A DNA stretch of 52,090 bases from Magnetococcales bacterium (GTDB taxonomy: Bacteria; Pseudomonadota; Magnetococcia; Magnetococcales; UBA8363): positions 1 through 52,090 of the forward strand of contig JADGCV010000030.1 in the NCBI GenBank assembly GCA_015228815.1. Reading direction: 5' to 3'. The notes under the pieces were generated by a model. It searched no databases. It saw nothing but the letters and a program-made list of their open reading frames with translations, and had not been told where the DNA came from. Shown piece after piece: positions 5,362-44,104 of this stretch (positions within the stretch are counted from its first letter, which is position 1; each line of letters starts with the position of its first letter). The position numbers and the translations under genes are program-made.

Positions 5362-5390
5362 CAAACCTGAATTGGAGTGGATGCCTCAAA

Positions 5391-5405
5391 TCCCAGACCC
5401 TGGGA
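5391..5405 (-). terminator. Short hairpin between galU and the hybrid kinase gene
   Basis: TCCCAG and CTGGGA pair as a 6-bp stem around a 3-nt loop, 30 nt upstream of the kinase start. Only a TTT follows on the minus strand, so it is at best a weak terminator of galU or a leader structure. The rest of 5362-5558 shows no gene. Confidence 0.25.
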
Positions 5406-5558
5406 TCGGCAGTGGGACCGACCTCGTTTGCCACAACGATTCACCCCTTCATGAATGGTGGCATTCAGGCGAAGCGAATTCCCGAAAGCGACACCATAAA
5501 ACACCCGACCCTCCGAAGTACAGACCTGATTCATTCTTTTTCAGGAGCGACAACAGGA

Positions 5559-6401: not shown

Positions 6402-6444
6402 GGTACACCTTGAGTTACAATCTTCGGGAGGGGCTCGGCCTGGA

Positions 6445-7821
6445 CTATCCCAGACCGATGTTCTTGAACTTCCGGTGCAAGGCGGAACGCTCCATGCCGA
6501 TCGCCTCGGCAGTCCGGGATATGTTGTTTTCGTTGCGCTCCAGATGGGTCTTCAGGTAGATCCGCTCGAATCCCTGGCGCGCCTCGCGCAGGGAACCGAT
6601 TTCCAGAAGCGCCTCCCAGGGCGTCGATGCGGGTGAAACGCTTCGCTTGTGGATGAATTCCGGCAGATCCTCGGGTTCGATGATCGAACCGGGGGCCATG
6701 ATCATCAATCGTTCCACCAGATTTTTCAACTCACGAACATTCCCCGGCCAGTGATACCCCATCAGACACTTCAGGGACGCCTCCGAGAAGGCTCGATCCC
6801 GGGGCAGGCTTTCCCTCTGCTGCTGCATGAAATGATCGACCAACAGTGGCACGTCTTCCAGCCGTTCGCGAAGGGGGGGGATGAACAGAGGGATGACATC
6901 GAGTCGATAGTACAGATCCTGGCGGAAACGCCCTTCGGCAATCTCCACTTCCAGGTCCTTGTTCGATGCCGTGATCACCCGGACATCGACGTCAATGGGA
7001 TGGCGTCCATCGACGCGGTGAAACCTCTGCTCCTGAAGAACCCGGACAATCTTCGATTGGGTCCTCGGCGACATGTCGCCGATGGCATCCAGAAACAGGG
7101 TACCGCCATGGGCCTGTTCGAATCGACCGGGCCGAATGTTGGGCGGTTGGGCAAGTCCTCCTTCTTCCTGTCCAAAAAGCTCGACCTCAATCCGCTCCTC
7201 GGGAATGGCCGCGGAATTGAGCGGTATGAAGGGTCCCTGATGCCTCCGGGATTGTCCATGGATCTGACGTGCCGCGACCTCCTTGCCAACGCCATTCTCC
7301 CCCGTGATCAATACCCAGCCATCGGTAGGCGCCAGACGCTTGATCTGATCCCGAAGCAACTCCATCCCACGGGATTTTCCCAACAGTGGCGGGACAGTCT
7401 TCATCCGCGCCTTGAGATCGCGGTTTTCCCGTACCAGTTCCCACTCCCGAATCGCCCGGTCCAACAGCAGCAAAACCCGATCCAGTGACAGCGGTTTTTC
7501 CAGAAAATCATAGGCCCCTTCCTTGGTGGCGCTCACCGCGGTATCGATGGTGCCATGGCCCGACATCATGATGACAGGAATTCCGCCATTCACTCCATCG
7601 ATGATCGGTTGCGAACGGATCCGCCGAAGGGTTTGGATACCATCGATGCCATCCATCCAGATGTCCAGAAGAACTGCCGACAAAGGTTCCCGGGCGATCA
7701 CCTCCAACCCTTGTTCCCCCGATTCCGCCTCGAAGACCTGATAATTTTCATCCTCCAGGATTCCCTTGAGGCTGATGCGAATCGGTTGTTCGTCATCGAC
7801 GATTAGAATTCTATGGCTCAT
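6445..7821 (-). CDS. ntrX: NtrX-type response regulator with degenerate AAA+ domain
   Basis: 458 aa. Order: receiver (1-120; DD at 9-10, phospho-Asp D53 in VLLDIWMDGIDG, K109), NtrC-like AAA+ domain (140-370) and Fis-type HTH (about 410-458, ISRTAEAIGMERSALHRKFK). Walker A is GENGVGKE (174-181). The sigma54-contacting GAFTGA loop is absent (EEGGLAQPPNIRP instead), and the Walker B glutamate is Ala (LFLDAIGDM, codon GCC). The first is known for alphaproteobacterial NtrX, which represses or activates without sigma54; the second should impair ATP hydrolysis. Its ATG overlaps the ntrY stop as ATGA, so the pair is co-translated. Confidence 0.87.
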   Translation of the reverse strand: MSHRILIVDDEQPIRISLKGILEDENYQVFEAESGEQGLEVIAREPLSAVLLDIWMDGIDGIQTLRRIRSQPIIDGVNGGIPVIMMSGHGTIDTAVSATKEGAYDFLEKPLSLDRVLLLLDRAIREWELVRENRDLKARMKTVPPLLGKSRGMELLRDQIKRLAPTDGWVLITGENGVGKEVAARQIHGQSRRHQGPFIPLNSAAIPEERIEVELFGQEEGGLAQPPNIRPGRFEQAHGGTLFLDAIGDMSPRTQSKIVRVLQEQRFHRVDGRHPIDVDVRVITASNKDLEVEIAEGRFRQDLYYRLDVIPLFIPPLRERLEDVPLLVDHFMQQQRESLPRDRAFSEASLKCLMGYHWPGNVRELKNLVERLMIMAPGSIIEPEDLPEFIHKRSVSPASTPWEALLEIGSLREARQGFERIYLKTHLERNENNISRTAEAIGMERSALHRKFKNIGLG

Positions 7822-10064
7822 GTCGCCTGTCTTGCCTCGATCGTTTCAGGTTTGGCCTCCTGGGGTGCTCCGGGTCCGGCATGATCGAGCGGCAGCTTGA
7901 TTTCGACCAGAACTCCGTGCCATTCCGATTCCTTCAGGCGGATCGTTCCACCATGGTCTTCGATGATCTTCCTGACAATGGCCAACCCCAACCCCGTTCC
8001 CTTTTTCTTGGTGGTAAAATAGGGTTCGAAGACCCGATCCCGGTCCTGGGCGGGGATTCCAATGCCATTGTCGGCAATCTCCAGCGAAATCCGCCCGCTG
8101 CGCTCCAACAGATGGGTGGACAGGGACAGAATGGGTGGTGACGTCCCTTCACGGGTGGCGGCAATGGCGTTGGCGATCAGATTGGTGACCACCTGTTTGA
8201 TCTGCCCTGGATCATGGGGAATCCGGTTGATGCGTTCATCGAAGGAAATACGCACTTCCATCGCTGTCAGCGCTTCGGCATGCAAAATCAATGCCTCTCT
8301 TATGGATGCGTGAATCTCATGGTCATGCAGGCGCGGGCGGGGCAGCCTGGAAAACGTGGAAAATTCGTTGACCAACACCCGAAGCTCCTCGACCTGCTGG
8401 ATGATGGTGTTGGTGCCCTCGTCCAGGATTTTCAAATCGATTTCGGTCGAACCAGGATTTTTCATGTATTTCCTGCGAATCCTCTGCGCCCAGAGTTGAA
8501 TCGGGGTCAGGGGGTTCTTGATTTCGTGGGCGATGCGGCGGGCGACTTCGCTCCAGGCCGAGGTGCGCTGCGCGACCAGGACATCGGTGATGTCGTCAAA
8601 GGTGGTGATGAATCCCCGGCTTTCACCCAGATGATCTTCGAGCAGGGTGATCCGGGCCAGAAGGGTCATCGGTTTGTTCTCTCCCTGGATGGCGATCTGG
8701 ATTCCCGGAAGGCTCGGTTCTCCGGGAACGGGTGGGGGAAGGGGGATCGAACGGTCCTTCTGTTCTTTCAGGAATCGATGCAATGGCTCCAGGAAGGCCT
8801 CGGGCATGACTTCATCCAAGGCGCGACCGATCGCCTCCACGGGATCCACGGCCAGCAGTTTGGCCGCGGTCGGGTTCATCAGTGTCACCTTGTGGTGTTG
8901 ATCGACGCTGATCACCCCGGAGGAAATGTTGTGGACGATGGCGGCCATGAACCGGCGTCGCTCTTCCAGGAGTGCGTTGGTATTCTGGAGTTCATCCCTG
9001 TTTTCACTCAGTTTGCGGATCATCGCGTTGAACGCGGTCATCAGGGTGGCCAATTCGTCGTCGCCACCGATGGCCAGATTGACCGACAAATCTCCCTGGG
9101 CCACTTTTCGCGTCCCGATGACCAGCTCGGTGATGGGGTCGGTCAAACTGTTGGCAATGCCAAAGCCCGACCAGATGGCGGCCAGCAACAGCAGCATCGT
9201 GATCAATACCAGCGTGACGGTGTGGTTGGCCTTGAGCAACTCATGGGTCGCCCGCAATTGTTTGTAATGAGTATAGGTCGATTCGATCGTCTCCATTTGA
9301 CCCAGAATCTGGCGATCGATCCAGTGTCCGGTGGAGAGGAACAATTCCTCTCCCAGCGGCACGAAGGCGCGTACCCGGTCTCCCACGTCATTGGTCGTCA
9401 TGAGCGCTTTGTTTGACCCTTCACTGAGCGACGACAGGTCGGGGATGGGGTCGAAGGGCAGTTCCCCCGCCCGGGCCAGTCGGGCGCCGTCGGCACGAAG
9501 AATGGCGATTTCGTCCAGACCTCGGGCCTGACGTTCGATCTCAAGCTGCGCCACCGCCGCTTCCGCGCCCCCCAGCGATAACGATGTCGTTACCCGACGA
9601 TTGCGGACGATGGATTCGGCATCATGGCGGACGGTGCGCTGGTTTTCATGATAATAGGCCCGCGCAACTTCCAGCGAACTTTCCAGGGCCAGTGAAATGC
9701 GGTCGGAAAACCAGGAATCGACGCCGCGGTTGAGAAAATTGAGCGAAAGAATCGCAATCACCAGGGTCGGCAACAGCGACAGCAGCACAAACATCGAAAC
9801 CATCCTCAGGCGCAGTTTCGAGCCGGCACGACGTTGATAATGATCCTGCCACAACCGGAACACCTTGCGAAACACCAATACGCCCAACACCAGTGCCAGA
9901 AACAAATTCAGATACAACAGCACCAGAAAAAAAAGACTGTATTCCCCGGCAACCGTCGCCGACCCACGCAGTCCCTGGGCCGTGACCATGGTGATGGCGA
10001 TGACCACCAACAGCAACAGGCTCCAGACCCAGCGTTTTCTCCCTTTTTCCGCGGATGACTTCAT
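7818..10064 (-). CDS. ntrY: NtrY-type membrane sensor histidine kinase
   Basis: 748 aa. Membrane segments at about 12-30, 43-65, 88-110 and 281-303 enclose a roughly 170-residue external region. HAMP follows (305-355), then PAS (370-490), HisKA with RIAHEIKNPLTPIQ (H513) and a HATPase with IADNGIGIP and [13 protein letters not shown]. This is the NtrY layout. The family senses nitrogen, redox or envelope-related cues and phosphorylates NtrX at the inner membrane. It is coupled to ntrX by an ATGA overlap and preceded, also with overlap, by a DUF4390 lipoprotein gene, a neighbourhood seen in other proteobacteria. Confidence 0.88.
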   Translation of the reverse strand: MKSSAEKGRKRWVWSLLLLVVIAITMVTAQGLRGSATVAGEYSLFFLVLLYLNLFLALVLGVLVFRKVFRLWQDHYQRRAGSKLRLRMVSMFVLLSLLPTLVIAILSLNFLNRGVDSWFSDRISLALESSLEVARAYYHENQRTVRHDAESIVRNRRVTTSLSLGGAEAAVAQLEIERQARGLDEIAILRADGARLARAGELPFDPIPDLSSLSEGSNKALMTTNDVGDRVRAFVPLGEELFLSTGHWIDRQILGQMETIESTYTHYKQLRATHELLKANHTVTLVLITMLLLLAAIWSGFGIANSLTDPITELVIGTRKVAQGDLSVNLAIGGDDELATLMTAFNAMIRKLSENRDELQNTNALLEERRRFMAAIVHNISSGVISVDQHHKVTLMNPTAAKLLAVDPVEAIGRALDEVMPEAFLEPLHRFLKEQKDRSIPLPPPVPGEPSLPGIQIAIQGENKPMTLLARITLLEDHLGESRGFITTFDDITDVLVAQRTSAWSEVARRIAHEIKNPLTPIQLWAQRIRRKYMKNPGSTEIDLKILDEGTNTIIQQVEELRVLVNEFSTFSRLPRPRLHDHEIHASIREALILHAEALTAMEVRISFDERINRIPHDPGQIKQVVTNLIANAIAATREGTSPPILSLSTHLLERSGRISLEIADNGIGIPAQDRDRVFEPYFTTKKKGTGLGLAIVRKIIEDHGGTIRLKESEWHGVLVEIKLPLDHAGPGAPQEAKPETIEARQAT

Positions 10065-24004: not shown

Positions 24005-24099
24005 AGGAAAAAAAGTGGAAGTTCCTAAATTTGATTGATTTTTCTAAATTATTAATGAAACTCATGGCTATAAATTACCCCACCTCAGGAGATCTGGCC

Positions 24100-25179
24100 A
24101 TGTGCGATAATGCGAAGAGATTTCGTGCCGTCAGGAGCCAACTTGCCAAGGCCCATCCAATCCAACCGAGGGGAAATTTTGCGCGACATTTAGACACGCT
24201 TGCCGGGTTGGTAAGTGGTATCGTTGGCAGCAAGAGCGTGAATCTGCCAAAGGTGGCATTGGAGGTGCCAGATGGCAACAAGCCATCCAGTCGGGAGAAG
24301 AAGTTTTGTCGATTGATAGACAATCAAAGTATTGATTTTGAAAGATATTTCTTGCCATATGTTAAGACTATGCTCAGCAATCTTGGGGGAGAAATTTTGG
24401 TTATTGCCATTGATGGAAGTACTGTTGGCCGAGGTTGCATAACCTTGATGGCGAGCGTAATTTTCCAAGGCCGTTCTTTGCCAATTGCTTGGCTTGTAGT
24501 AAGGGGAAAAAAGGGTCACTTGGCAGAGTCTTTCCACCTTGAGCTACTCAACAGTCTCAAGGATATTGTTCCTGACGGGAAGCAGGTTGTGATTGTGGGT
24601 GACGGCGAGTTTGATGGGATCAGATTGCAGGATTATGTAAAAAGTTGTGGATGGAACTATGTCTGTCGTACTGGAGTTAACATCTCCATAGTGTGGAATG
24701 GTCATGAGGTTAAATGTGGGGACGCAACGGAAAGTTTAGAGCCTGGTAAGTACATAATCTTTAAAGATATATTGTTCACAGAAGAGAGATATGGTCCAGT
24801 TAATGTCGTCTGTTATTGGAGGAAAGGATATAAGGATCCCATTTTCCTTGTGACGAGCATCGATTCGGCTGGGAGGGCTTGCGCCTTATACCGTTTACGT
24901 TTCAGGATAGAGACGCTTTTTTCAGACAAAAAGAGCCGTGGTTTCAACATTCACAAGTCACATCTATCTGATCCAGAGAGAATTTCAAGACTGCTCATTG
25001 CGGTGAGCCTTGCGTACATCTGGATCGTTTTTTTAGGGGTGGTGGCGAAGACTGAGGGGTGGGTGGGTATTATTCACAGAACCAAACGTTGCGACCTGAG
25101 TCTGTTTCAGCTCGGTCTGCGTTTTCTGGAGCATTTAATAAACAGAGGCATGAGAGTCATAGTATTATTCTCGTTTTAA
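24100..25179 (+). CDS. IS4-family DDE transposase
   Basis: 359 aa from ATG 24100, which has AGGAGA 9 nt ahead; the frame is open further upstream. It catalyses cut-and-paste movement of the element. The catalytic triad is visible: Asp in VIAIDGST, Asp in VGDGEFDG, and Glu in YRLRFRIETLFSDKK, which exactly fits the IS4 Y-(2)-R-(3)-E-(6)-K signature. No internal stop or frameshift is seen. Its GC content is well below that of the core genes. Confidence 0.9.
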   Translation: MCDNAKRFRAVRSQLAKAHPIQPRGNFARHLDTLAGLVSGIVGSKSVNLPKVALEVPDGNKPSSREKKFCRLIDNQSIDFERYFLPYVKTMLSNLGGEILVIAIDGSTVGRGCITLMASVIFQGRSLPIAWLVVRGKKGHLAESFHLELLNSLKDIVPDGKQVVIVGDGEFDGIRLQDYVKSCGWNYVCRTGVNISIVWNGHEVKCGDATESLEPGKYIIFKDILFTEERYGPVNVVCYWRKGYKDPIFLVTSIDSAGRACALYRLRFRIETLFSDKKSRGFNIHKSHLSDPERISRLLIAVSLAYIWIVFLGVVAKTEGWVGIIHRTKRCDLSLFQLGLRFLEHLINRGMRVIVLFSF

Positions 25180-25564: not shown

Positions 25565-26041
25565 TTATTCTTGGCGTAAGTAGTTCACCAAACCTCCACA
25601 CTCGATAATATTCTTCAGAAAACCAGAGATCGGAACAAAAGTATGCGTCGTTCCGCCAATATCGACCGTGGATCGATCGGTATCGATGGTGAGTACATCA
25701 CCTGTATGCACCTCTGGAAGAGTTTGAATTTCAATGAGAAGAATGCCCAAATTAATTGCATTGCGGAAGAAAATTCGGGCAAAACTGCGGGCCAGGATGA
25801 TCTTGACGCCCAGTTCGGCCAGAACAGCTGGTGCCTGTTCTCGGCTGGAACCGCAGCCAAAGTTTTTCCCTCCTATTAAAATTTGGCCCGGTTGGTATTG
25901 AGTGGCGAACGCCCGGTCCTGGGGCTCCATGGTATAAGCAGCCATTTCTTTAATGGTGGGCAAGGTCAAATATTGGGTAGGAATGATCTGATCGGTATCA
26001 ATATCGTCTCCGAATACCCACGTCTTTTCCTGTATCCGCAT
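25565..26041 (-). CDS. leuD: LeuD-type small subunit of an aconitase-family dehydratase
   Basis: 158 aa, the short type-2 LeuD swivel domain. The start is ATG 26041, fused to the stop of the preceding large subunit as TAATG. Motifs: DDIDTDQIIPTQYLTL, GKNFGCGSSREQAPAVL and FARIFFRNAINLGILLI. The YLTL loop is the position that discriminates substrates among isopropylmalate and homoaconitate isomerases, where YLxx variants such as YLVY or YLRT are known; YLTL is neither, so the substrate is uncertain. It must partner one or both LeuC-type proteins encoded immediately upstream. Confidence 0.85.
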   Translation of the reverse strand: MRIQEKTWVFGDDIDTDQIIPTQYLTLPTIKEMAAYTMEPQDRAFATQYQPGQILIGGKNFGCGSSREQAPAVLAELGVKIILARSFARIFFRNAINLGILLIEIQTLPEVHTGDVLTIDTDRSTVDIGGTTHTFVPISGFLKNIIECGGLVNYLRQE

Positions 26042-27285
26042 TAAACTTCTCCAGTTGGGCTGGTTATTTTTCCATGGACGGCACTCAAAGCTACAGTGGC
26101 CGGGCTGGCCAGATAGATCTCCGAGTGGGCACTGCCTGCCCTTCCCTTGAAGTTGCGATTGGCTGTGGAGATCATTTTCTGTCCTTTGGCCAGAGACCCC
26201 TGTGAAGCGCCCCAACAGGTGCTGCACCCCGGATGATTGACAATCGCGCCGGCCTCCATGAAACGGCCAATCAGACCGCGCTCAAGCGCTGCCTGATAAA
26301 CGGCTACCGAGGCGGGAGTCACCAACATACGTACCTCCGGATGGATCTTGCGTCCACGAAGCTGCGCAGCAGCGATTTCAAGATCGTCCAGCCGGCCATT
26401 CGTGCAGGATCCCAGAAATGCTTGGTCGATGGGTGTCCCTGCAACTTCGGCAATATCTTTGACATTGTCTACATGATGAGGGCAGGCCACCTGTGGTTCC
26501 AGGTGGGAAACATCAAAAGAACGCCTTTCGGCGTATGTCGCATTCATCCCCGTTTCGAAGAAATCCCAACTGATGTCACGATTGGCGAAGTGTCGGCGGG
26601 TAGTTTCATCAGGTAAAATCATGGAGCTTTTTCCGCCGGCTTCGATGACCATGTTGCACAGGGTAAATCGTTCGGAGATCGAAAGGTTGCCTACCAAATC
26701 GCCACCGAATTCCACCGCCATATAAGTGGCTCCGGAAGCGGTCAAATGTTTGATGACATACAGAATCACATCTTTGGCATAGACACCGGGCTTAAGGCTT
26801 CCTGAAAGTTCGATGCGCAGGCATTCAGGCACCTTGAGCCATGTCCGACCGGAACCGATAACCGCGGTAATGTCGGTGGACCCCATTCCCACCGAAACTG
26901 CGCCGATACTACCGTAACTGCAGGTATGGGAATCGGCCGCCACCACCAATTCACCGGGTTTGACGTAGCTTTCGAACATGACCTGATGGCAAACGCCGTC
27001 ACGTTCGTGCAGCCTAAGGTCATGTTGCTTGGCGAAGTTTCGTATTATCTGATGCGCTTCGGCGGTGTTGATATCATCGGCAGGGATGCGATGATCATTG
27101 ATCAGCACCACTTTTTCTCGGATTCCTACCCGGTCGAAGCGGAACCGATCATTGAACAGGGAAACGGTCAGGGGAATCGTGACATCATTCGCCATGCACC
27201 AATCCACCTCCACTTCCACAACTTCTCCTGCTTGCACCTTTGGAAGGCCAGCATGTTTGGCGATGATCTTCTCGGTCATGTTCAT
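26041..27285 (-). CDS. leuC: LeuC-type aconitase-family large subunit (second copy)
   Basis: 414 aa, the short type-2 form near 418 aa. It is a [4Fe-4S] hydro-lyase that isomerises hydroxy-acids of the isopropylmalate/homocitrate type with a LeuD partner. Cluster cysteines are C293 (GSCTNGR), C354 and C357 (HPGCSTCWG). Conserved GVCHQVMFE, AADSHTCSYG and GMGSTD blocks support an active enzyme. AAGGA lies 10 nt before ATG 27285. It is 55 bp downstream of another LeuC paralogue and overlaps leuD by one base. The two paralogues are clearly divergent, so this is not a fresh duplication. Confidence 0.85.
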   Translation of the reverse strand: MNMTEKIIAKHAGLPKVQAGEVVEVEVDWCMANDVTIPLTVSLFNDRFRFDRVGIREKVVLINDHRIPADDINTAEAHQIIRNFAKQHDLRLHERDGVCHQVMFESYVKPGELVVAADSHTCSYGSIGAVSVGMGSTDITAVIGSGRTWLKVPECLRIELSGSLKPGVYAKDVILYVIKHLTASGATYMAVEFGGDLVGNLSISERFTLCNMVIEAGGKSSMILPDETTRRHFANRDISWDFFETGMNATYAERRSFDVSHLEPQVACPHHVDNVKDIAEVAGTPIDQAFLGSCTNGRLDDLEIAAAQLRGRKIHPEVRMLVTPASVAVYQAALERGLIGRFMEAGAIVNHPGCSTCWGASQGSLAKGQKMISTANRNFKGRAGSAHSEIYLASPATVALSAVHGKITSPTGEV

Positions 27286-27340: not shown

Positions 27341-28594
27341 TCAGTGCCGTGATTGTGGGTTGGTCAGGCATCCCGCCACTACCGATGCGGCTACGGTAGC
27401 CGGGCTGGCCAAGTAGATTTCCGCGCTTGGATGGCCCAATCTGCCAGGAAAATTGCGGTTGTTGGAGCAGACAGCCACTTCCGTAGGACCGATCACGCCT
27501 CCCAACTTGCCAAAACACAGACCACAGCCGGGATTGGTAACCACTCCTCCAGCTTCCAGGAAGATGGTGATCAACCCTTCCTCCATGGCCTGTTGGTAAA
27601 TGGTACGACTGGCCGGGGTAATGATCAGTTTGACGAAGGGGGCTACCTGACGACCTTGAAGATAGGTCGCTGCTTCCCTCAGATCACTCAGACGGCCATT
27701 GGTACAAGAACCGATGAATCCTTGATGGATGATTTTTCCAGCCAGTTCATCCACGGGGTGGATGGAATCCACTTTTCCAGGACCGGCCAGTTGCGGTACC
27801 AGTGTGGCCAGGTCCACGGTGATTGAATCCTGATAGTGGGCATCATGGTCACTGGCGAAACGTTGATAATCCGTAATACCTCGATCACTCAAGTAGGACT
27901 CGGTGATTTCATCAACCGGAAAAATACCATTTTTTGCACCCATTTCAACCACCATGTTGCTTATGGTCAACCTCTGTTCCATGGAAAGCGCTGCCACACC
28001 TTCACCGGTGAATTCTATCGCCTTGTAGGTGCAGCCATCAGCCCCGAATCGTCCGATGAGGTGCAAGATGACATCCTTGGCGGTAACGCCCGTACCCAAA
28101 GAACCTTCCAGACGAATCTGAATGGAGTGAGGTACTTTCAACCAGACGGATCCCCTGCTCCAGATGCCGGCCATTTCGGTGCTGCCCATGCCGGTAGCCA
28201 GTGCGCCAAGAGCGCCATAGGTCACGGTGTGGGAATCGGTACCAATGACGATCGATCCGGGGATGACATAACCCTTTTCAGGCATCAGTTGATGGCAGAT
28301 ACCTTCACCATAGTGGAATTTATCAATTCCCCAAGATCTTGAGAATTCGGCCATTCTTTGGTAGATGTTTCCGGAATTACTGGAAGTTGAAGGGACATCA
28401 TGGTCGATAATGAGGACCACCCCATCTGGACGCCACAGAGGTTTTCCCAGTTTTTCAAACTCGGTGATCACCGTGGTCGCAAAAATGTCATGGGCGAAAA
28501 CCCGGTCCACCGCGACGGTCACGATTTCACCAGGAATTACCTTTACTTTTCTTGCGTTATTGGCGATGATCTTTTCTGTAAGCGTTTGTCCCAT
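27341..28594 (-). CDS. leuC: LeuC-type aconitase-family large subunit (first copy)
   Basis: 417 aa, same short type-2 form. Cluster cysteines are C297 (GSCTNGR), C357 and C360 (NPGCGLCFG). GICHQLMPEKG, GTDSHTVTYGALGA and GMGSTE are intact. It is first in the leftward order leuC-leuC-leuD, with AAGGA 9 nt before the ATG. The only small subunit in the window is the LeuD beyond the second copy, so the two large subunits may compete for it or form two enzymes with one shared subunit. The substrate cannot be read from sequence; leucine, citramalate or homocitrate-type pathways are all possible. Confidence 0.85.
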   Translation of the reverse strand: MGQTLTEKIIANNARKVKVIPGEIVTVAVDRVFAHDIFATTVITEFEKLGKPLWRPDGVVLIIDHDVPSTSSNSGNIYQRMAEFSRSWGIDKFHYGEGICHQLMPEKGYVIPGSIVIGTDSHTVTYGALGALATGMGSTEMAGIWSRGSVWLKVPHSIQIRLEGSLGTGVTAKDVILHLIGRFGADGCTYKAIEFTGEGVAALSMEQRLTISNMVVEMGAKNGIFPVDEITESYLSDRGITDYQRFASDHDAHYQDSITVDLATLVPQLAGPGKVDSIHPVDELAGKIIHQGFIGSCTNGRLSDLREAATYLQGRQVAPFVKLIITPASRTIYQQAMEEGLITIFLEAGGVVTNPGCGLCFGKLGGVIGPTEVAVCSNNRNFPGRLGHPSAEIYLASPATVAASVVAGCLTNPQSRH

Positions 28595-35700: not shown

Positions 35701-36468
35701 ATGATTAAATTTATTTTCATCCATATTTTGAAGCATATTGTGTGTTCCGTCATGCCACTATTGATACTCTATTCAAATCCCTGTTTTGCCTTCGCGGGGA
35801 ATGAATCGGGTCTTGGCGTGGCCATCGATATTGGACATACCTCCTCTGCCGTTGGCGCCCGGAGTGCCCGAGGTCGGGGGGAATTCTACTTCAATCGGGC
35901 GGTGGGACTGCATGTCCTGATGGAATTGCAGCGACAGGGTTTTGAACGCTCCTTTGCCATCATCAATCCCAAGAGCCTGTATGCCAGAACACGAATGGCG
36001 CATGAAAAGAAAGCGGATCTGCTGCTTTCATTCCATCATGATTCCGCCCAGTCCCAGTTCCTTGAAGAATGGATCCATGAGGGAAAGAAACAACGGTTCA
36101 GTGACCGCTTCAGGGGATTTTCATTGTTGATTTCCACGAAGAATCCTCGTTTCCGAGAAAGCCTGCGACTGGCGACGATGATTGGTCGGCATCTGAAACG
36201 GGAGGGGTTCGAACCGACCCTGCATCATGCCGCGGACATACCAGGGGAGCGGCATGCCTTGTTCAATGCCCGACTGGGTATCTACTGCTATGATGATCTG
36301 GTCGTATTGCGGACCGCCTCCATGCCCGCGGTCCTTGTGGAAGTCGGGGTGATCATCAACCGGCAGGAGGAGGTGATCCTGAGTCGGGAAGAGACTCGAA
36401 ACAAGGTGGCACGGGCCATCGTTTTAAGCCTTCGGGAATACCAGGAATGGGGCGGGAAGCGTCGATGA
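35701..36468 (+). CDS. N-acetylmuramoyl-L-alanine amidase (Amidase_3)
   Basis: 255 aa with a signal peptide (about 1-32, cleavage near CFAFA-GN). The zinc amidase fold is shown by VAIDIGHTSSAVGA (H46), E61 in GRGEFYFN, LLLSFHHDS (H112 or H113) and the catalytic E214 in MPAVLVEVGVI. It would cut the MurNAc-L-Ala bond in the periplasm for cell separation or wall turnover. It lacks extra SPOR or AMIN domains, so localisation must come from partners. It is divergently transcribed from the FHA gene over a short AT-rich region. Confidence 0.85.
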   Translation: MIKFIFIHILKHIVCSVMPLLILYSNPCFAFAGNESGLGVAIDIGHTSSAVGARSARGRGEFYFNRAVGLHVLMELQRQGFERSFAIINPKSLYARTRMAHEKKADLLLSFHHDSAQSQFLEEWIHEGKKQRFSDRFRGFSLLISTKNPRFRESLRLATMIGRHLKREGFEPTLHHAADIPGERHALFNARLGIYCYDDLVVLRTASMPAVLVEVGVIINRQEEVILSREETRNKVARAIVLSLREYQEWGGKRR

Positions 36469-37301: not shown

Positions 37302-37318
37302 GCCTACCGAATGTTCGG

Positions 37319-37335
37319 CCTGCCGCGACGGCAGG
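37319..37335 (+). terminator. Hairpin after higA
   Basis: CCTGCCG and CGGCAGG pair perfectly around a CGA loop; a 10-bp palindrome, GTAGGCCTAC, overlaps the higA stop just before it. No T run follows, so termination is uncertain. Confidence 0.3.
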
Positions 37336-37390
37336 AAAAGGGGACTCCTTTCACCCTTTGGCCGGGCGCCCTCCTGAAAGGCGTATCGGG

Positions 37391-37549: not shown

Positions 37550-37610
37550 ACTTCCAAAGGTTGAGGTCGTATCGTTGCCTAAAATTTACGCCAACCAAGG
37601 AGGTTGAACC

Positions 37611-37856
37611 ATGTTGACCATCACCCTGCCCGATGACTTGGCGGAAGAGTTCCGGTTGATGGCTGAGGCGAACGGAAAAACCTTGCCTGAATGCGTCATT
37701 GTGACCATCCGGCGTTACTTGGAGGAACTGGAAGACCGACAGGACACCGAAGACGCACGGAAGGCATTAGAGGAATACCGTCGCAATCCTGGCACGGCAG
37801 TTACCATGGATGAAATATTGAAAGAATATGGTTTGGCCAGGGAAGAGTTGCCATGA
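37611..37856 (+). CDS. RelB-type (ribbon-helix-helix-like) antitoxin
   Basis: 81 aa. The N-terminal MLTITLPDDLAEEFRLMAEANGK resembles the strand-helix of RelB/DUF6290 antitoxins; the acidic C-terminal half (residues 40-81) is the usual toxin wrap. A strong AAGGAGG lies 7 nt before the ATG. The stop overlaps the relE start as ATGA. It is intact, although its toxin partner is truncated. Confidence 0.8.
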   Translation: MLTITLPDDLAEEFRLMAEANGKTLPECVIVTIRRYLEELEDRQDTEDARKALEEYRRNPGTAVTMDEILKEYGLAREELP

Positions 37857-38065
37857 CCTACGCGGTGGTTTGGGATGACATTGCCCGTCGGCAACTGCGC
37901 AATCTGGACCCGACAACACGGAAACGGGTTATCAAAAAGGCGGTAAGCCTGGAATCAAATCCTCGTCCACAGGGAGCCAAGAAACTATCAGGACTGCCCG
38001 ACACTTGGCGCATTCGCGCTGGGGACTATCGGATCACAAGGATTCGGACTCCGACTACGGAGTGA
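37853..38065 (+). pseudogene. relE: C-terminally truncated RelE toxin gene
   Basis: 70 codons. The first 60 are a standard RelE/ParE toxin (YAVVWDDIARRQLRNLD, KKLSGLPDTWRIRAGDYRI). The usual C-terminal strand (VYxIxDxxxxVxVxxVGHRxxVY) is missing. The sequence passes directly into hicB sequence near 38033 and ends in ten unrelated residues. A deletion that joined relE to hicB explains both truncated ends. Loss of the last strand removes catalytic residues of most RelE toxins, so activity is doubtful. Confidence 0.75.
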
Positions 38066-38405
38066 CCGTTCCCACCTGCCCGGATGTTTTTCCGCCGGAT
38101 TGACCCTGGACGAAGCCGCCACCATGGCTGTGGAGGCCATTCAAACCCATGTGGAAGGCTTATTGCTGGATGGCGCGGTCCTCCCCGATCCCCGTTCTTT
38201 GGAAGAGCATCAGGCCAACCCGGATTTTGCGGGGGCCGTGTGGGTGCTGGTGTCGGTGGACATGGGCAAAATTTCGGGCAGGGTCAGACGGGTCAACATC
38301 ACCATCCCGGAACCGGCCCTGGTGCGCATCGACCAGTATGCCCGGACCCACGGGGAAACCCGTTCCAGTTTTCTGACGAGGGCAGCGCTGCAAGCCATGC
38401 GCTGA
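38034..38405 (+). pseudogene. hicB: hicB antitoxin gene: 5' end lost and frameshifted
   Basis: One frame from about 38035 encodes HKDSDSDYGVTVP, the HicB N-terminal strand. The continuation, LPGCFSAGLTLDEAATMAVE, through VNITIPEPALVRIDQYARTH and a ribbon-helix-helix end, is in another frame up to 38405. One missing base near 38073 (CCCACCTG where CCCGACCTG would read VPDLPG) explains the shift. The first few codons are gone at the junction with relE. The C-terminal part could still be made from the in-frame TTG at 38100 as a DNA-binding fragment. Confidence 0.75.
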
Positions 38406-38568: not shown

Positions 38569-40053
38569 ATGATCGATTGCGCCGTGATTCCTGCGGGTGG
38601 GAGGGGTTCTCGTGTCACGGCAAAACGCAAGGACCGGAATCTGATCAAGGTTCTTCTGCCCATCGATGGAAAACCGGTTCTTCAGGAAAATATCGAGATT
38701 GTCCGGGATCGCCTGGGAATTCGCCGAATCATCATCATTATCGGGCATCATGGAGATGAAGTCCAAAAGTTTCTTGGAGATGGCGAACCTTTCGGCGTCA
38801 GGATTGAATATCTCTATACCGATGTGGACAAGGGGTTGGTGGAAGCGCTATTGCTCGCCGAGCCACACGTCAGAGGCCATTTTGTCCTGCTGTTGAGTGA
38901 TGGGTTTTACCTGAACTGCAATCATGAAACCCTTTTGCCTCTGGACTACGCAACGATTGATGGCGTGGTTACCTACATCCACCATTACAGCCATGAGGAC
39001 ATATCCAGTTCCTTCTCCATCAATCTGGCCCCGAATGGCAACCGGGTCTCTTATCTGGTAGAAAAACCACAAACTGTCAACAATGACATGCTGGGTTTGG
39101 GAACATTCGTGCTCAGCAAAGAAATATTCGAATATTTCAGAAATGTACATGTCAATGAACGCACTGGAAACCGCGAATTTATTGACGCGATTTCTTTTTT
39201 CGCTCAGGAGAGGCACGTCATTGGCCATATGTTGACAGGCTTGTACGTCAATATCAATACAACCGATGATTGGCATTTTGCTCAGTTTCTTGCCCGCCGC
39301 CATGTTTTCGACGAAACCAGAAAGAGTCTGGTTATCCCAACGTATAACGAAAACGAGTCCATTCTCTTCGTGTTGAACAATTTCCATGAGTGTGTCGATG
39401 AGATTGTCGTAGCGGATGGTGGCAGTTCCGATGGTACGGTGGAAAAAGTTGAAGGATTTCGCGATCGCTGTGCCTGCGCACTGATCCTGTTGAGAGGACC
39501 GTTTCGTGGCTATGGCGATGCTTTGCGACAGGGAGTGGAGGCAAGCACGGGCCATATTGTGACCTTTGTGGAGGCCGATGCTACATTCCGATCCCAGGAC
39601 CTGTCAAAAATGTACGAATATATTAAAGACTGTGACATGGTTCTCGGGACGCGCACAACACGCCAGATGATCTGCCAGGGGGCCAACATGAATGGTTGGC
39701 TGCGTTTTGGCAACGTGCTGGCCGCCAAAGGGATTGAGTTTCTGTGGTGGTTCAATGGCGAACCCCGCATTACGGATGTGGGATGTACCTATCGCACTTT
39801 TTGGAGAAATCGTTATGAGGAAATCAAACATAATTTTGTCGGTCAGGGGCCGGAATTTTCTCCAGAGATGATGATCGAATTTATTAGAAATAATAAAAGA
39901 GTTATCGAGATTCCGGTCAGTTACTTTCGCCGGGTCTCCGGCGAATCAAAGCACTCGCGAGGAATCCTGGGGGTATCAAAAACCGCATGGCGCATGTTGG
40001 TGCTGACGCTGAGGAAGCGGTTTTCCAGAGCTTTCGGAACGGTCTATCCATAA
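38569..40053 (+). CDS. Nucleotidyltransferase / DPM1-like GT2 glycosyltransferase fusion
   Basis: 494 aa from ATG 38569, with AGGAG 9-10 nt ahead. Domain 1 (about 1-240) is a sugar-1-phosphate nucleotidyltransferase: VIPAGGRGSRVTAKRK, KVLLPIDGKPVLQENI, LLSDGFY and VEKPQT. Domain 2 (about 255-490) is a GT-A family 2 transferase like DPM1: LVIPTYNENESI, VVADGGSSDGTVE, GYGDALRQGVEASTG, FVEADATF and a TDVGCTYRTF block. No membrane helices. A likely job is to make an NDP-sugar and hand the sugar to polyprenyl phosphate; the sugar is unknown. The downstream DprE1/DprE2-like genes on the same strand suggest later epimerisation of that lipid-linked sugar. Confidence 0.8.
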   Translation: MIDCAVIPAGGRGSRVTAKRKDRNLIKVLLPIDGKPVLQENIEIVRDRLGIRRIIIIIGHHGDEVQKFLGDGEPFGVRIEYLYTDVDKGLVEALLLAEPHVRGHFVLLLSDGFYLNCNHETLLPLDYATIDGVVTYIHHYSHEDISSSFSINLAPNGNRVSYLVEKPQTVNNDMLGLGTFVLSKEIFEYFRNVHVNERTGNREFIDAISFFAQERHVIGHMLTGLYVNINTTDDWHFAQFLARRHVFDETRKSLVIPTYNENESILFVLNNFHECVDEIVVADGGSSDGTVEKVEGFRDRCACALILLRGPFRGYGDALRQGVEASTGHIVTFVEADATFRSQDLSKMYEYIKDCDMVLGTRTTRQMICQGANMNGWLRFGNVLAAKGIEFLWWFNGEPRITDVGCTYRTFWRNRYEEIKHNFVGQGPEFSPEMMIEFIRNNKRVIEIPVSYFRRVSGESKHSRGILGVSKTAWRMLVLTLRKRFSRAFGTVYP

Positions 40054-40100
40054 ACTTTCAAGTCAAACGAGGTTTATCAATTACCAGGAGATCGTCAAGG

Positions 40101-41429
40101 TTGTTGCACTATAAAAGCTGGGGTGGCTACCCCTCTACCCCTCAGACGGGTGTTCCCCTGTATTGGGGCCAAGACCTTCTTGTACAATTGGCAAGGTATC
40201 CGGAATCAAAGGTGCTTCCTTTTGGTAACGGTCGTTCCCAGGGGGACGTGTGTCTCAATGGCGGGGGAATTCTTGTGGGTACCCGGTCCATGGATCGGTT
40301 TCTTCACTTCGACCATCTCCAGGGGACCATTATTTGCGAATCGGGGGTGTTGCTTGGGGAGCTGATGGAGATGACCGTGCCCAGAGGCTGGTTTCCCATC
40401 GTTACCCCGGGGACCCGGTTCATCACCATCGGTGGAGCCATCGCCAATGATGTCCATGGGAAAAACCATCACCGGGCAGGAAGTTTTGGCAATCAGGTGC
40501 TGCGCTTGGAACTGTTGCGTTCCGATGGTCAGAGATTGATCTGTTCGCCAACGGAAAATCGTTCCTGGTTTGAGGCAACTATTGGTGGTCTGGGGCTTAC
40601 AGGGTTGATATTATGGGCCGAACTGCGTCTCCGCCCCATAGCCAATCCCTTGATTCATCAGCAAGTCATCCGTTTTTCCCATCTGGATGACTTCTTTGCC
40701 ATCTCTGTCGATTCCGATCAGGATTATGAATATACTCTGGCCTGGGTCGATGGGCATGCAACGGGAGCAAATCTGGGACGGGGTGTTCTGACTCGGGGAA
40801 ATCATGCAGGTTTTTTCACCGATTCCCATCGCCAGGTTGCGCAACCCGCGCTGCAACCCAGTTTTCCGGTAACGTTACCATTTTCATTGGTTAATCCATG
40901 GACCGTATCGTTATTCAACAAATTTTATTACCATAAGCCCATTCGCAAGGATGGCTATTCAACAATTCATTATCGCCCTTTCTTTTATCCGTTGGACGGT
41001 ATTTTGCATTGGAACCGTGTTTATGGTCGTGGTGGGTTTCTGCAATACCAATGTGTTGTTCCAACTGCACATGGTCGCGATGCCATGAAGGAGATTTTAT
41101 CTCGTATTGCGGCAACGCGGTTGGGTTCCCTGATTGCAGTTCTCAAGATTTTCGGCGCGGTTTCCTCTGTGGGGCTGCTTTCTTTTCCCCGTCCGGGTGT
41201 TACCCTTGCCATTGATTTTCCTAATCCTGGACCGCGAACATTGGAGCTTCTATCCAAACTGGATGGAATCGTCAGACAGGCTGGTGGAGCGGTCTATCCG
41301 GCCAAGGATGCCCGCATGAGTCCTGAGGCTTTTCACGACTACTATCCGAAAACGGATCGATTTCGGGAATTTATCGATCCCCGATTTTCATCGCAATTTT
41401 GGCGGCGCATCCGTGGGGGGAATCCATGA
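40101..41429 (+). CDS. FAD-linked oxidase, DprE1-like
   Basis: 442 aa from TTG 40101, chosen because AGGAG lies 10 nt ahead and HYKSWGGYP then opens the protein as in DprE1 homologues; the frame is open upstream into the previous gene. FAD domain: FGNGRSQGDVCLNGGG, PRGWFPIVTPGTRFITIGGA, NDVHGKNHHRAGSFGN. The C-terminal YPAKDARM matches the DprE1 end. DprE1 oxidises the 2'-OH of decaprenyl-phospho-ribose to a keto intermediate that DprE2 reduces. The stop overlaps the SDR start as ATGA, so the two are made together. Neighbouring transferases suggest a lipid-linked sugar substrate, not necessarily ribose. Confidence 0.8.
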   Translation: MLHYKSWGGYPSTPQTGVPLYWGQDLLVQLARYPESKVLPFGNGRSQGDVCLNGGGILVGTRSMDRFLHFDHLQGTIICESGVLLGELMEMTVPRGWFPIVTPGTRFITIGGAIANDVHGKNHHRAGSFGNQVLRLELLRSDGQRLICSPTENRSWFEATIGGLGLTGLILWAELRLRPIANPLIHQQVIRFSHLDDFFAISVDSDQDYEYTLAWVDGHATGANLGRGVLTRGNHAGFFTDSHRQVAQPALQPSFPVTLPFSLVNPWTVSLFNKFYYHKPIRKDGYSTIHYRPFFYPLDGILHWNRVYGRGGFLQYQCVVPTAHGRDAMKEILSRIAATRLGSLIAVLKIFGAVSSVGLLSFPRPGVTLAIDFPNPGPRTLELLSKLDGIVRQAGGAVYPAKDARMSPEAFHDYYPKTDRFREFIDPRFSSQFWRRIRGGNP

Positions 41430-42163
41430 GGAAGATACTGGTCATGGGAGCTACATCGGCCATTGCCCAAGCAACAAACCGATTGTTTGCTCAGGATGGG
41501 GACTATCTGTTCCTGGTGGCACGCAACAGGGAAAAACTGGAAAGCATATCCGCAGATTTGGCACTTCGAGGTGCGGGACGTGTGATAACCGTCGTTCAGG
41601 ATGCCAACGCCACGGAAGGTCATGCGGCATTGGTCAAACAGGCTGCTCAGGCATTGGGTGGGCTGGATACGCTATTGGTGGCCCATGGACTGCTTCCAGA
41701 TCAGAAGCAGTGCCAGGCTTCGTGGACAGCGACACGTCAGGCCTTGGAAACCAATGCCTTGAGTATTCTCTCTCTGCTCACACATGGCGCAAACCATTTT
41801 GAAGCCCAAGGACATGGTACCATTGCCGTCATTTCGTCAGTTGCTGGAGACAGGGGTCGGCAGAGCAATTATGTTTACGGCGCTGCCAAGGCGATGGTTT
41901 CGACTTTTCTCCAAGGTTTACGCAATCGGTTGCACGCCTCGGGGGTTACGGTGGTTACGATCAAACCGGGTTTTGTGGATACACCCATGACAGCTTCCTA
42001 CAGTAAGGGGCTGTTGTGGGCCCAACCCGAACAGGTCGCCCGGGACATCCATGAAGCGGTTGTCTCGAAGAGGGAGATTTGTTATACCCCATGGTTTTGG
42101 CGCTGGATTATGTGGGTGATTCAGCATCTTCCAGAGTGGCTGTTCAAACGCCTTTCCCTATAA
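41426..42163 (+). CDS. Short-chain dehydrogenase, DprE2-like
   Basis: 245 aa from ATG 41426 in the ATGA overlap. Classical SDR: nucleotide motif GATSAIAQATNR, NALSILSLL, catalytic Ser in ISSVAG and the YxxxK pair in NYVYGAAKAM. A hydrophobic C-terminal stretch (WFWRWIMWVIQHLPEWLFKRL) resembles the membrane-associating tail of DprE2-type reductases. The adjacent DprE1-like oxidase makes a two-step 2'-epimerase the best reading. The gene converges with a GT-C gene 66 bp away. Confidence 0.82.
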   Translation: MRKILVMGATSAIAQATNRLFAQDGDYLFLVARNREKLESISADLALRGAGRVITVVQDANATEGHAALVKQAAQALGGLDTLLVAHGLLPDQKQCQASWTATRQALETNALSILSLLTHGANHFEAQGHGTIAVISSVAGDRGRQSNYVYGAAKAMVSTFLQGLRNRLHASGVTVVTIKPGFVDTPMTASYSKGLLWAQPEQVARDIHEAVVSKREICYTPWFWRWIMWVIQHLPEWLFKRLSL

Positions 42164-42229
42164 TTTTCACCCATGAGATGGATCCGAATCCAGGATGTGT
42201 TTGGAATTGCTTCGGGTCAACAAGTGAAA

Positions 42230-43855
42230 TCAGGATTTTGTATCGTAAACCAACCAGTCGTCTGACTCGATAATACGCTTGCAGCAATTTTGTTTAAGAA
42301 ATTTTTCCATGGTTGCGGAACGATCAAATTTATAAAAGATGATATATCTATAATGGGCATAGAGTTCATCTCCCAGGACATCAAGGGCATTTCCAACTCC
42401 GGCTTCCTCAACGACATTAACCCCACCATACTGTCCAAGGGCATACATGATCGCCGGTTCCCTTCCATAATAATTCTGTATCAAAATTTCTTTCCGCGCT
42501 TCTTTATTGGAATCCAGGTTCCATTCACTGGATAGAAACTTCCTCTTGGTAATTCGGGCCATGAAATCCGTGGCTTTGTAAAACGGGTCGTCATCGGGAA
42601 ATTTTGCATCGCTATTCATAAAAAGATAGGCGTACTGATGCTTCTCAAGGATATTCCCTACCTTCTGGGATATTTCATGGTATCTTTTTGATGAAGAAAA
42701 AATGCTAAATATGTTGTCTTTGAAAAACAGGAAGAAGGAAACAAACGCCGCCATCGTGACAAAAATAACACGAATATTTGAGCCGCTCTTGATTAGATGA
42801 TTCGTTTCCAGAAGTCTTTCGACATCGTGCGCACCACACCCGGCAACCGTGGCAAAAAAGGGTACGAGGATAACGGAGTAGTATTCATGGGGGTAGTTTA
42901 TTGGAAACATGAAGTAATACACTGGTACAATGGTCAGAAGAACAAGATTCTCAGGGGATTTCTTTATCTTGATGAGTGATAGAATCCCAATTGAATATAA
43001 TAGGAATACGAAGGGATTTCCGAGATCCAGCAGGATCCTGGAAAGGAGTGTCTTGATTAATTTGAGGGCATTGGGCTCGATTTTTCCAGCGTGGAGGAGG
43101 ACCATGGAATTCCCATCATGGAGGATGGTCACGGCAATCCATGCAACGAGAGAAAGAAAAATAATAGATGTGTATAATACAACCAAATAATTGTATTTAA
43201 AATAATCCACAACCGATCCAAGAAAATTGTCCCTCTTGATAGACTGGAAAAAATGAAAAAGAAAGAATAACGTGACAGGAAACAAATAGACAGCCTTGAT
43301 CATTGCTGCCATGGAACCTGTCAATATATACAGAAAGACTGTTACTTTATGGTTGTCACCGCGAGTAATCTGGACAAGAAGAAAGAAAGCGACCGTCCCA
43401 CAGAGTGCCGATAAGATGTCCGGGAGAACCGATGGATGGAATAACAGGCTGATTGGCGACACCAAGTAAAATAATGTGCCATATAATCCCACCACAGTAT
43501 TAAATAAGATTCTTCCGATATAAAAGACAAATAATGATGTAATAATCCCAAAGAATATATTAACCGTTCGTGAGGTGATCAGCGTTTCGCCAGTATACTT
43601 CGACAGCAAGAACATGGAATATTGAAACAGGGGTGCCTCGTAAAGTTTGTTGGAAGGCCACGGTTCATAATTTATTTTGTACTTAAGAAAATCAACATCA
43701 TGATCTTCATAGGAATCGATATTGGATAGCGTATGAAGTTGCCTGAATTGGTGGGCCCCAAAAAAAGGATCATCGATTCCGATAAATTTTATGGCTGTCG
43801 ATAAGCAAAACAACCCCGAAAATACAGCGAAAAAAATGATCTTTCGAAGGCTCAT
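42230..43855 (-). CDS. GT-C (PMT/ArnT-like) membrane glycosyltransferase
   Basis: 541 aa with roughly ten or more predicted membrane helices over residues 5-390 and a C-terminal soluble part (about 400-541). The first external loop has an acidic GIDDPFFGAHQFRQ motif, as in GT39/GT83-type transferases that use polyprenyl-phosphate sugars. PHEYYSVILVPFFA lies in a later helix. GGAG lies about 10 nt before the ATG. It is convergent with the DprE-like operon, whose product would be a suitable donor. GC content is well below that of the flanking genes. Confidence 0.72.
   Translation of the reverse strand: MSLRKIIFFAVFSGLFCLSTAIKFIGIDDPFFGAHQFRQLHTLSNIDSYEDHDVDFLKYKINYEPWPSNKLYEAPLFQYSMFLLSKYTGETLITSRTVNIFFGIITSLFVFYIGRILFNTVVGLYGTLFYLVSPISLLFHPSVLPDILSALCGTVAFFLLVQITRGDNHKVTVFLYILTGSMAAMIKAVYLFPVTLFFLFHFFQSIKRDNFLGSVVDYFKYNYLVVLYTSIIFLSLVAWIAVTILHDGNSMVLLHAGKIEPNALKLIKTLLSRILLDLGNPFVFLLYSIGILSLIKIKKSPENLVLLTIVPVYYFMFPINYPHEYYSVILVPFFATVAGCGAHDVERLLETNHLIKSGSNIRVIFVTMAAFVSFFLFFKDNIFSIFSSSKRYHEISQKVGNILEKHQYAYLFMNSDAKFPDDDPFYKATDFMARITKRKFLSSEWNLDSNKEARKEILIQNYYGREPAIMYALGQYGGVNVVEEAGVGNALDVLGDELYAHYRYIIFYKFDRSATMEKFLKQNCCKRIIESDDWLVYDTKS

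Positions 43856-44029: not shown

Positions 44030-44104
<75 letters not shown>

What the first reader, a model, noticed from the sequence alone, without database searches (positions are those of the whole stretch)
38569..43855. Compact putative pathway for a lipid-linked, epimerised sugar (NT-GT2 fusion, DprE1-like, DprE2-like, GT-C)
Four adjacent genes supply every step in order: nucleotide sugar formation and transfer to polyprenyl phosphate (one fused protein), 2'-oxidation and re-reduction (FAD oxidase and SDR with ATGA overlap), and a GT-C transferase that would use a polyprenyl-phosphate sugar. DprE1/DprE2 chemistry is best known for decaprenyl-phospho-arabinose in mycobacteria; there the precursor comes from a UbiA-type enzyme, not from a DPM1-like GT2 fusion. 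The combination suggests a different lipid-linked sugar.
Basis: partly seen in the sequence, partly recalled or inferred. Interest (0 to 1): 0.68.

Follow-up and report, generated by a model that had tools for sequence, protein, structure and literature searches.

The report
UbiA-free route to lipid-linked arabinose
A rare fused enzyme in a magnetotactic-type bacterium and a few others appears to replace the usual UbiA-type enzyme that feeds the DprE1/DprE2 arabinose pathway (a tuberculosis drug target), which would mean that lipid-linked arabinose can be made from a nucleotide sugar instead of from PRPP.

Summary
The genes are real. A nucleotidyltransferase-GT2 fusion (38569-40053 +), a DprE1-like oxidase (40101-41429 +) and a DprE2-like reductase (41426-42163 +, ATGA overlap) form an operon-like cassette. 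The GT-C gene (42230-43855) is convergent, on the minus strand.

Elsewhere, DprE1-DprE2 pairs are fed by a HAD-UbiA phosphoribosyltransferase (PPPRS) that uses PRPP: 41 of 59 fetched loci have a UbiA-type gene nearby, and 14 more genomes carry one elsewhere. All four genomes with a close fusion (>=54% identity) plus DprE1 have no detectable PPPRS (0/4, against 56/58 without the fusion). The two exceptions have altered DprE1 pockets.

The fusion accompanies two DprE1-E2 lineages that cannot be joined as one clade (AU p=0.003), and a third in G025. Pocket residues of fusion-linked and PPPRS-linked DprE1s are nearly the same.

Best reading: the fusion replaces PPPRS and makes polyprenyl-phosphate-ribofuranose from a nucleotide sugar; DprE1/E2 epimerise it to arabinofuranose; the GT-C transfers it. 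The GT-C family occurs in only the two cassette genomes among 48 of the order. The NT substrate is inferred, not shown. New variant of a known kind.

The parts
38569..40053 (+). NT-GT2 fusion (494 aa): N-terminal sugar-1-phosphate nucleotidyltransferase domain (residues about 6-240) and C-terminal DPM1-like GT2 domain (residues about 251-465); no TM segment. Proposed polyprenyl-P-ribofuranose synthase that makes its own nucleotide sugar.
   Evidence: PF00483, PF00535; RmlA and DPMS as nearest solved structures; relatives at 69, 57, 54 and 36% identity; motifs GGxGxR, K27, D111, EKP and D234 kept
40101..41429 (+). DprE1-like FAD oxidase (442 aa), proposed polyprenyl-P-ribose 2'-oxidase; likely start TTG 40101
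   Evidence: NF053785 357 bits; M. tuberculosis DprE1 E 1e-68; pocket residues H132, K134, W230, D318, R325, Q334, Q336, K367, K418 kept
41426..42163 (+). DprE2-like SDR (245 aa), proposed 2'-keto reductase; ATGA overlap with the DprE1-like gene
   Evidence: NF005489 323.5 bits, NF053786 187 bits; M. tuberculosis DprE2 E 1e-28
42230..43855 (-). GT-C-type membrane protein (541 aa), convergent with the cassette; proposed arabinofuranosyltransferase using the lipid-linked sugar
   Evidence: PF13231 26.6 bits; 8 TM-like segments; family found only in the two cassette genomes of 48 in the order; G012 copy 4.5 kb downstream of its cassette

Best explanation
The three-gene cassette is a UbiA- and PRPP-independent entry into the DprE1/DprE2 pathway. 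The NT domain activates a pentose 1-phosphate, most simply alpha-D-ribofuranose 1-phosphate, to an NDP-alpha-ribofuranose. The fused inverting GT2 domain passes it to undecaprenyl phosphate, giving undP-beta-D-ribofuranose. This is the same lipid that PPPRS plus a phosphatase make from PRPP elsewhere. The DprE1-like and DprE2-like enzymes then invert C2' through a 2'-keto intermediate to give undP-beta-D-arabinofuranose. After flipping, the GT-C protein transfers the arabinofuranose to a surface glycan or glycoprotein. Shown here: gene order, conservation, absence of PPPRS, pocket conservation, and co-occurrence with at least two DprE1/E2 lineages. Inferred: the substrate of the NT domain, the product of the GT2 domain, the final acceptor and the flippase.
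For: Same cassette in two phyla. In 41 of 59 other fetched DprE1 loci a UbiA-type gene, mostly HAD-UbiA directly before DprE1, stands where the fusion stands here. Whole-genome test: G000, G012, G025 and G398 (fusion + DprE1) have no PPPRS (at most 41.5 bits or no hit), while 13 Verrucomicrobiota genomes without a UbiA at the locus, and G009, have one elsewhere (168-634 bits); 0/4 against 56/58, p about 3e-5. The fusion is joined to DprE1-E2 lineages that do not form one clade (AU p=0.0028), with G025 a third. DprE1 pocket residues are nearly the same in fusion-linked and PPPRS-linked proteins. GT-C family restricted to the cassette carriers in the order. Inverting GT2 chemistry on an alpha-NDP-pentofuranose gives the beta-linked lipid that DprE1 uses (established knowledge).
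Against: No direct evidence for NDP-ribofuranose in any bacterium was found, and the NT domain's nearest solved relatives are glucose-1-phosphate enzymes. G411 has a distant fusion (36%) without DprE1, so that branch makes a lipid-linked sugar that is used unepimerised. In G025 fusion and DprE1 are 33 kb apart. Only four genomes carry the close fusion; G012 is 71% complete and the completeness of G398 is not given, so absence of PPPRS there is weaker. Y60Q and L363I in the two Magnetococcales DprE1s could mean a shifted substrate. DprE1 alone does not reject a single origin (p=0.119). No flippase gene lies in the cassette.
Confidence: 0.55

Rival explanations
1. A different lipid-linked sugar: NT-GT2 makes a polyprenyl-P-linked hexose, hexofuranose or modified pentose, and the DprE1/E2-like pair epimerises that sugar at C2', giving a product other than arabinofuranose.
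For: The NT and GT2 domains are nearest to hexose enzymes (RmlA, DPMS). A dedicated NT suggests an uncommon sugar phosphate. Y60Q and L363I in the pocket of the two Magnetococcales DprE1s. G411 has a fusion without epimerase.
Against: The rest of the DprE1 pocket is the same as in PPPRS-linked enzymes, and the Verrucomicrobia cassette lacks both substitutions. Exclusive distribution of fusion and PPPRS. Association with DprE1-E2 lineages that are otherwise PPPRS-fed.
Confidence: 0.27
2. Two separate functions side by side: NT-GT2 makes a polyprenyl-P-hexose for the GT-C, while DprE1/E2 work on a lipid or soluble substrate supplied otherwise.
For: Fusion and DprE1-E2 are not adjacent in G025, and fusion without DprE1 exists in G411 beside a GT-C-like gene. 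No polyprenyl-P-ribose source other than the fusion is known in these genomes.
Against: Adjacent gene order kept in two phyla, in different DprE1-E2 lineages. With no PPPRS the pair would have no known substrate.
Confidence: 0.13
3. A degenerating or non-functional acquired island: the cassette is foreign, low-GC DNA next to toxin-antitoxin remnants and does nothing in this host.
For: GC3 0.50-0.55 in the cassette and 0.46 in the GT-C gene, against 0.66-0.77 downstream; none of seven same-genus genomes has the fusion or a DprE1 at E 1e-40.
Against: All reading frames intact, catalytic motifs kept, gene order kept with relatives of other families at 57-69% identity.
Confidence: 0.05

Closest known systems
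Three-component pentofuranose systems with PPPRS (Citrobacter youngae O1/O2; PMC11127046) and the HAD-UbiA/DprE1/DprE2 loci of Proteobacteria
   Same: DprE1/DprE2-type epimerisation of a polyprenyl-P-linked pentofuranose and a GT-C transferase that uses it; DprE1 pocket nearly the same
   Different: Entry enzyme: NT-GT2 fusion instead of UbiA-type PPPRS with PRP phosphatase; no MATE flippase gene at the locus; GT-C matches PMT_2 rather than a tested GT136 member
Mycobacterial DPA pathway (Rv3806c UbiA, Rv3807c, DprE1, DprE2, Emb/Aft transferases)
   Same: DprE1 and DprE2 are the best solved relatives of the two redox enzymes
   Different: No UbiA-type enzyme; below the equivalog cut-offs for DprE1 and DprE2; NT-GT2 entry
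GT2 polyprenyl-P-hexose synthases (DPMS, GtrB, ArnC, AglJ) with GT-C partners
   Same: GT2 domain of the DPM1 type (PF00535; DPMS E 4e-11) and a GT-C next door
   Different: Fused to its own nucleotidyltransferase, no TM anchor, first metal-motif Asp is Glu (ExD), and followed by a C2' epimerase pair
UbiA-independent arabinosylation of LAM in C. glutamicum (PMC2884958)
   Same: Arabinofuranose still reaches LAM without UbiA; the authors suggest an unknown sugar nucleotide
   Different: Genes unknown there; no sequence link to this cassette was tested

Membership tests
DprE1 (decaprenylphosphoryl-beta-D-ribose oxidase) | FAD_binding_4 domain and DprE1 as best solved relative | tested here: met
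   PF01565 68.8 bits; M. tuberculosis DprE1 E 1e-68, next family 2.5e-9
DprE1 (decaprenylphosphoryl-beta-D-ribose oxidase) | NCBIfam equivalog cut-off (NF053785, 500 bits) | tested here: not met
   357 bits; so DprE1-like, not filed as DprE1
DprE1 (decaprenylphosphoryl-beta-D-ribose oxidase) | Substrate-pocket residues H132, K134, W230, Q334, Q336, K367, K418 | tested here: met
   All kept; Y60Q, L363I, N385T and C387A differ from M. tuberculosis
DprE2 (keto-pentose reductase) | NCBIfam equivalog cut-off (NF053786, 250 bits) | tested here: not met
   187 bits; above the cut-off of NF005489 (323.5 against 267)
DprE2 (keto-pentose reductase) | Best solved relative is DprE2 and gene is paired with DprE1 | tested here: met
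   E 1.2e-28, next 3.8e-19; ATGA overlap with the DprE1-like gene
PPPRS three-component pentofuranose system | UbiA-type polyprenyl phosphoribose synthase | tested here: not met
   No UbiA-type PPPRS in G000 by PF01040 or by the HAD-UbiA model
PPPRS three-component pentofuranose system | MATE (or SMR) flippase gene at the locus | tested here: not met
   No such ORF between 35701 and 46922 by Pfam and reading of the ORFs; elsewhere in the genome not tested
PPPRS three-component pentofuranose system | GT-C transferase using the lipid-linked pentofuranose | tested here: inconclusive
   PMT_2 match just over cut-off, 8 TM-like segments; model too poor; activity unknown
Sugar-1-phosphate nucleotidyltransferase | NTP_transferase fold family and catalytic motifs | tested here: met
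   PF00483 53.1 bits; GGxGxR, K27, D111, EKP, D234
Sugar-1-phosphate nucleotidyltransferase | Sugar phosphate and NTP used | not testable with these tools
   No equivalog model reached its cut-off
Polyprenyl-P-sugar synthase (GT2, DPM1/GtrB-like) | GT2 domain related to DPMS/ArnC/AglJ | tested here: met
   PF00535; DPMS E 4e-11; AglJ model 81.8 bits, far below its cut-off of 325
Polyprenyl-P-sugar synthase (GT2, DPM1/GtrB-like) | Transfer of sugar from NDP-sugar to polyprenyl phosphate | not testable with these tools
   Needs an in vitro assay

The most novel reading that the evidence does not exclude
Bacteria possess a nucleotide-activated ribofuranose (NDP-ribofuranose) and a Leloir-type route to polyprenyl-phospho-ribofuranose/arabinofuranose that replaces the PRPP/UbiA route, acquired by unrelated lineages through a single fused gene.
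Probability: 0.45. Interest if true: 0.75.

Novelty: new variant of a known kind. Interest (0 to 1): 0.6.

Why it matters
Lipid-linked pentofuranoses (ribose, arabinose, xylose) in bacteria are thought to enter through one door, PPPRS acting on PRPP (PMC11127046), and no nucleotide sugar of arabinofuranose had been identified when the UbiA-independent LAM arabinosylation of C. glutamicum was reported (PMC2884958). This cassette names a specific candidate protein for a second, nucleotide-sugar door. It makes the question testable in vitro with one purified fusion protein and known DprE1/E2 assays. If right, it gives a new sugar nucleotide, a new activity for each of two old folds, and a DprE1 context that does not depend on PRPP.

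Tried and rejected
AlphaFold models of the fusion (3 sequences, pLDDT 40.6) and of the GT-C (2 sequences, pLDDT 36.5) are too poor for any fold search; none was run. The one genome-contig scan with the fusion found two loci only, because its peptide patterns came from a single sequence. tblastn of the fusion against plasmids found nothing at E 1e-20. A paper search for nucleotide-activated ribofuranose returned one unrelated review. MtxS/methylthioxylose was considered as a GT2-plus-GT-C precedent for a lipid-linked pentofuranose, but the papers held gave nothing usable. The single-origin test on DprE1 alone did not reject one clade (p=0.119); with DprE1+DprE2 it did (p=0.0028). G018 and G022, at first possible counter-examples (DprE1 without PPPRS or fusion), have substituted pockets.

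Full report
WHAT IS THERE. The window belongs to a 4.2-Mb, 99%-complete Magnetococcales-type genome (the nearest named relative is Magnetococcales bacterium nCLbin10). Between an amidase gene (35701-36468 +) and a tRNA-Val gene (44030-44104 -) lie, after a stretch with small toxin-antitoxin-like ORFs, three co-directional genes and one convergent gene. The first three are a nucleotidyltransferase-GT2 fusion (38569-40053 +), a DprE1-like FAD oxidase (from TTG 40101 to 41429 +) and a DprE2-like SDR (41426-42163 +, ATGA overlap). The fourth is a PMT_2-type GT-C protein (42230-43855 -). The cassette has GC3 0.50-0.55 and the GT-C gene 0.46, against 0.66-0.77 for the downstream housekeeping genes. 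Seven same-genus genomes have neither the fusion nor a DprE1 at E 1e-40, so it is probably an acquired island.

CONSERVATION. The three genes occur in the same order in Magnetococcales nCLbin10 (fusion 69% identity, DprE1 64%, DprE2 68%) and in a Verrucomicrobia MAG (fusion 57%, DprE1 51%, DprE2 57%). The fusion alone, 54% identical, is in G025 of the same order beside an LPG_synthase_TM protein, with a DprE1-DprE2 pair 33 kb away on the same contig. A 36% relative in the Verrucomicrobiota genome G411 stands beside a GT-C-like gene without DprE1. Overall the fusion is rare: 3 of 398 Pseudomonadota and 2 of 338 Verrucomicrobiota genomes, while DprE1-like oxidases are in 53 and 26 of them.

THE KEY COMPARISON. 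Of the 59 other DprE1 loci fetched, 41 have a UbiA-type gene at or near the DprE1 gene, mostly a HAD-UbiA fusion directly before DprE1 and DprE2 (Pfam check of one). This matches the polyprenyl phosphoribose synthase (PPPRS) plus phosphatase that makes polyprenyl-P-ribofuranose from PRPP (PMC11127046). Thirteen Verrucomicrobiota genomes without it at the locus, and G009, have one elsewhere; two of the thirteen (G414, G589) score only 168-171 bits and are less sure. G049 has a fragment at a contig end. The genomes with a close fusion have none. G000 has UbiA of ubiquinone synthesis and two CtaB proteins beside cytochrome-oxidase genes. G012 has two UbiA proteins, G025 one and G398 one. With the PPPRS model these four stay at or below 41.5 bits (G398 has no hit), whereas PPPRS carriers score 168-718. 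The two genomes with neither enzyme, G018 and G022, have altered DprE1 pockets.

NOT ONE INHERITED CASSETTE. On a tree of DprE1 the window and nCLbin10 group with PPPRS-linked copies of their own order, and the Verrucomicrobia copy groups with Verrucomicrobiota. Holding the three together is not rejected for DprE1 alone (p=0.119) but is rejected for DprE1+DprE2 (p=0.0028). G025's pair falls in a third place. The same fusion family was therefore joined to different DprE1-E2 lineages, each time with PPPRS missing. This is what a functional replacement predicts.

SUBSTRATE. The pocket residues known from M. tuberculosis DprE1 (positions from general knowledge, alignment) are kept, and are nearly the same in fusion-linked and PPPRS-linked proteins. 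The exceptions are Y60Q and L363I in the two Magnetococcales copies, which the Verrucomicrobia copy lacks. N385T and C387A are common to most of the copies outside actinobacteria. This argues that the substrate is still polyprenyl-P-ribofuranose. Stereochemistry fits: an inverting GT2 enzyme using an NDP-alpha-ribofuranose gives the beta-linked lipid that PPPRS makes from alpha-PRPP (established knowledge of GT2 and of DPR). The NT domain keeps its catalytic motifs. It departs from hexose enzymes at two sites that, from memory of RmlA structures, touch the sugar: the Asn after the metal-binding Asp is G or E, and the Gly of the YGV motif is S, A or T in all five fusions. This is compatible with a non-hexose substrate but proves nothing. 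The identity of the sugar phosphate is inference.

LAST STEP. The GT-C family of the window occurs in only two of 48 Magnetococcales genomes, the two that have the cassette (p=0.0009). In nCLbin10 one copy lies about 4.5 kb downstream of the cassette. This supports the GT-C as the user of the lipid-linked sugar despite its strand. The acceptor and the flippase are unknown.

VERDICT. The pathway reading holds, but the better-supported novelty is the entry route rather than a different sugar. It is a new variant of the DprE1/DprE2 pentofuranose pathway. An earlier hint of a sugar-nucleotide source of arabinofuranose exists in C. glutamicum (PMC2884958), without genes.

Noticed in passing
window 37313-37381 +, with 37600-38405 and tRNA-Val 44030-44104: An int-alpA sRNA match (RF02996, 36.5 bits against a cut-off of 35.8), toxin-antitoxin-like ORFs (HicB_lk_antitox at 38100-38405) and a tRNA gene flank the cassette, as in an integrated island.
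   Followed up: partly
L039 (G022) 8452-10029 -; L059 (G018) 7979-9412 -: DprE1-like proteins next to DprE2-like ones with substituted pocket residues (G022: K134A, W230H, Q334H, Q336H, K367R, K418R) in genomes with neither PPPRS nor the fusion; their substrate may differ.
   Followed up: partly
L062 (G411) 3620-7696 +: A distant NT-GT2 fusion (36%) directly after a GT-C-like gene and a separate GT2 gene, without DprE1 in the genome: the fusion's lipid-linked sugar seems usable without epimerisation.
   Followed up: partly
L067-L085 (Verrucomicrobiota): Many Verrucomicrobiota DprE1-DprE2 pairs stand in housekeeping surroundings with no UbiA gene nearby, while a full-length HAD-UbiA lies elsewhere in the genome.
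   Followed up: yes
window 26041-27285 - and 27341-28594 -: Two tandem aconitase-family ORFs of about 415 aa each (PF00330).
   Followed up: no
window 24031-25179 +: DDE transposase in a 0.43-GC patch.
   Followed up: no
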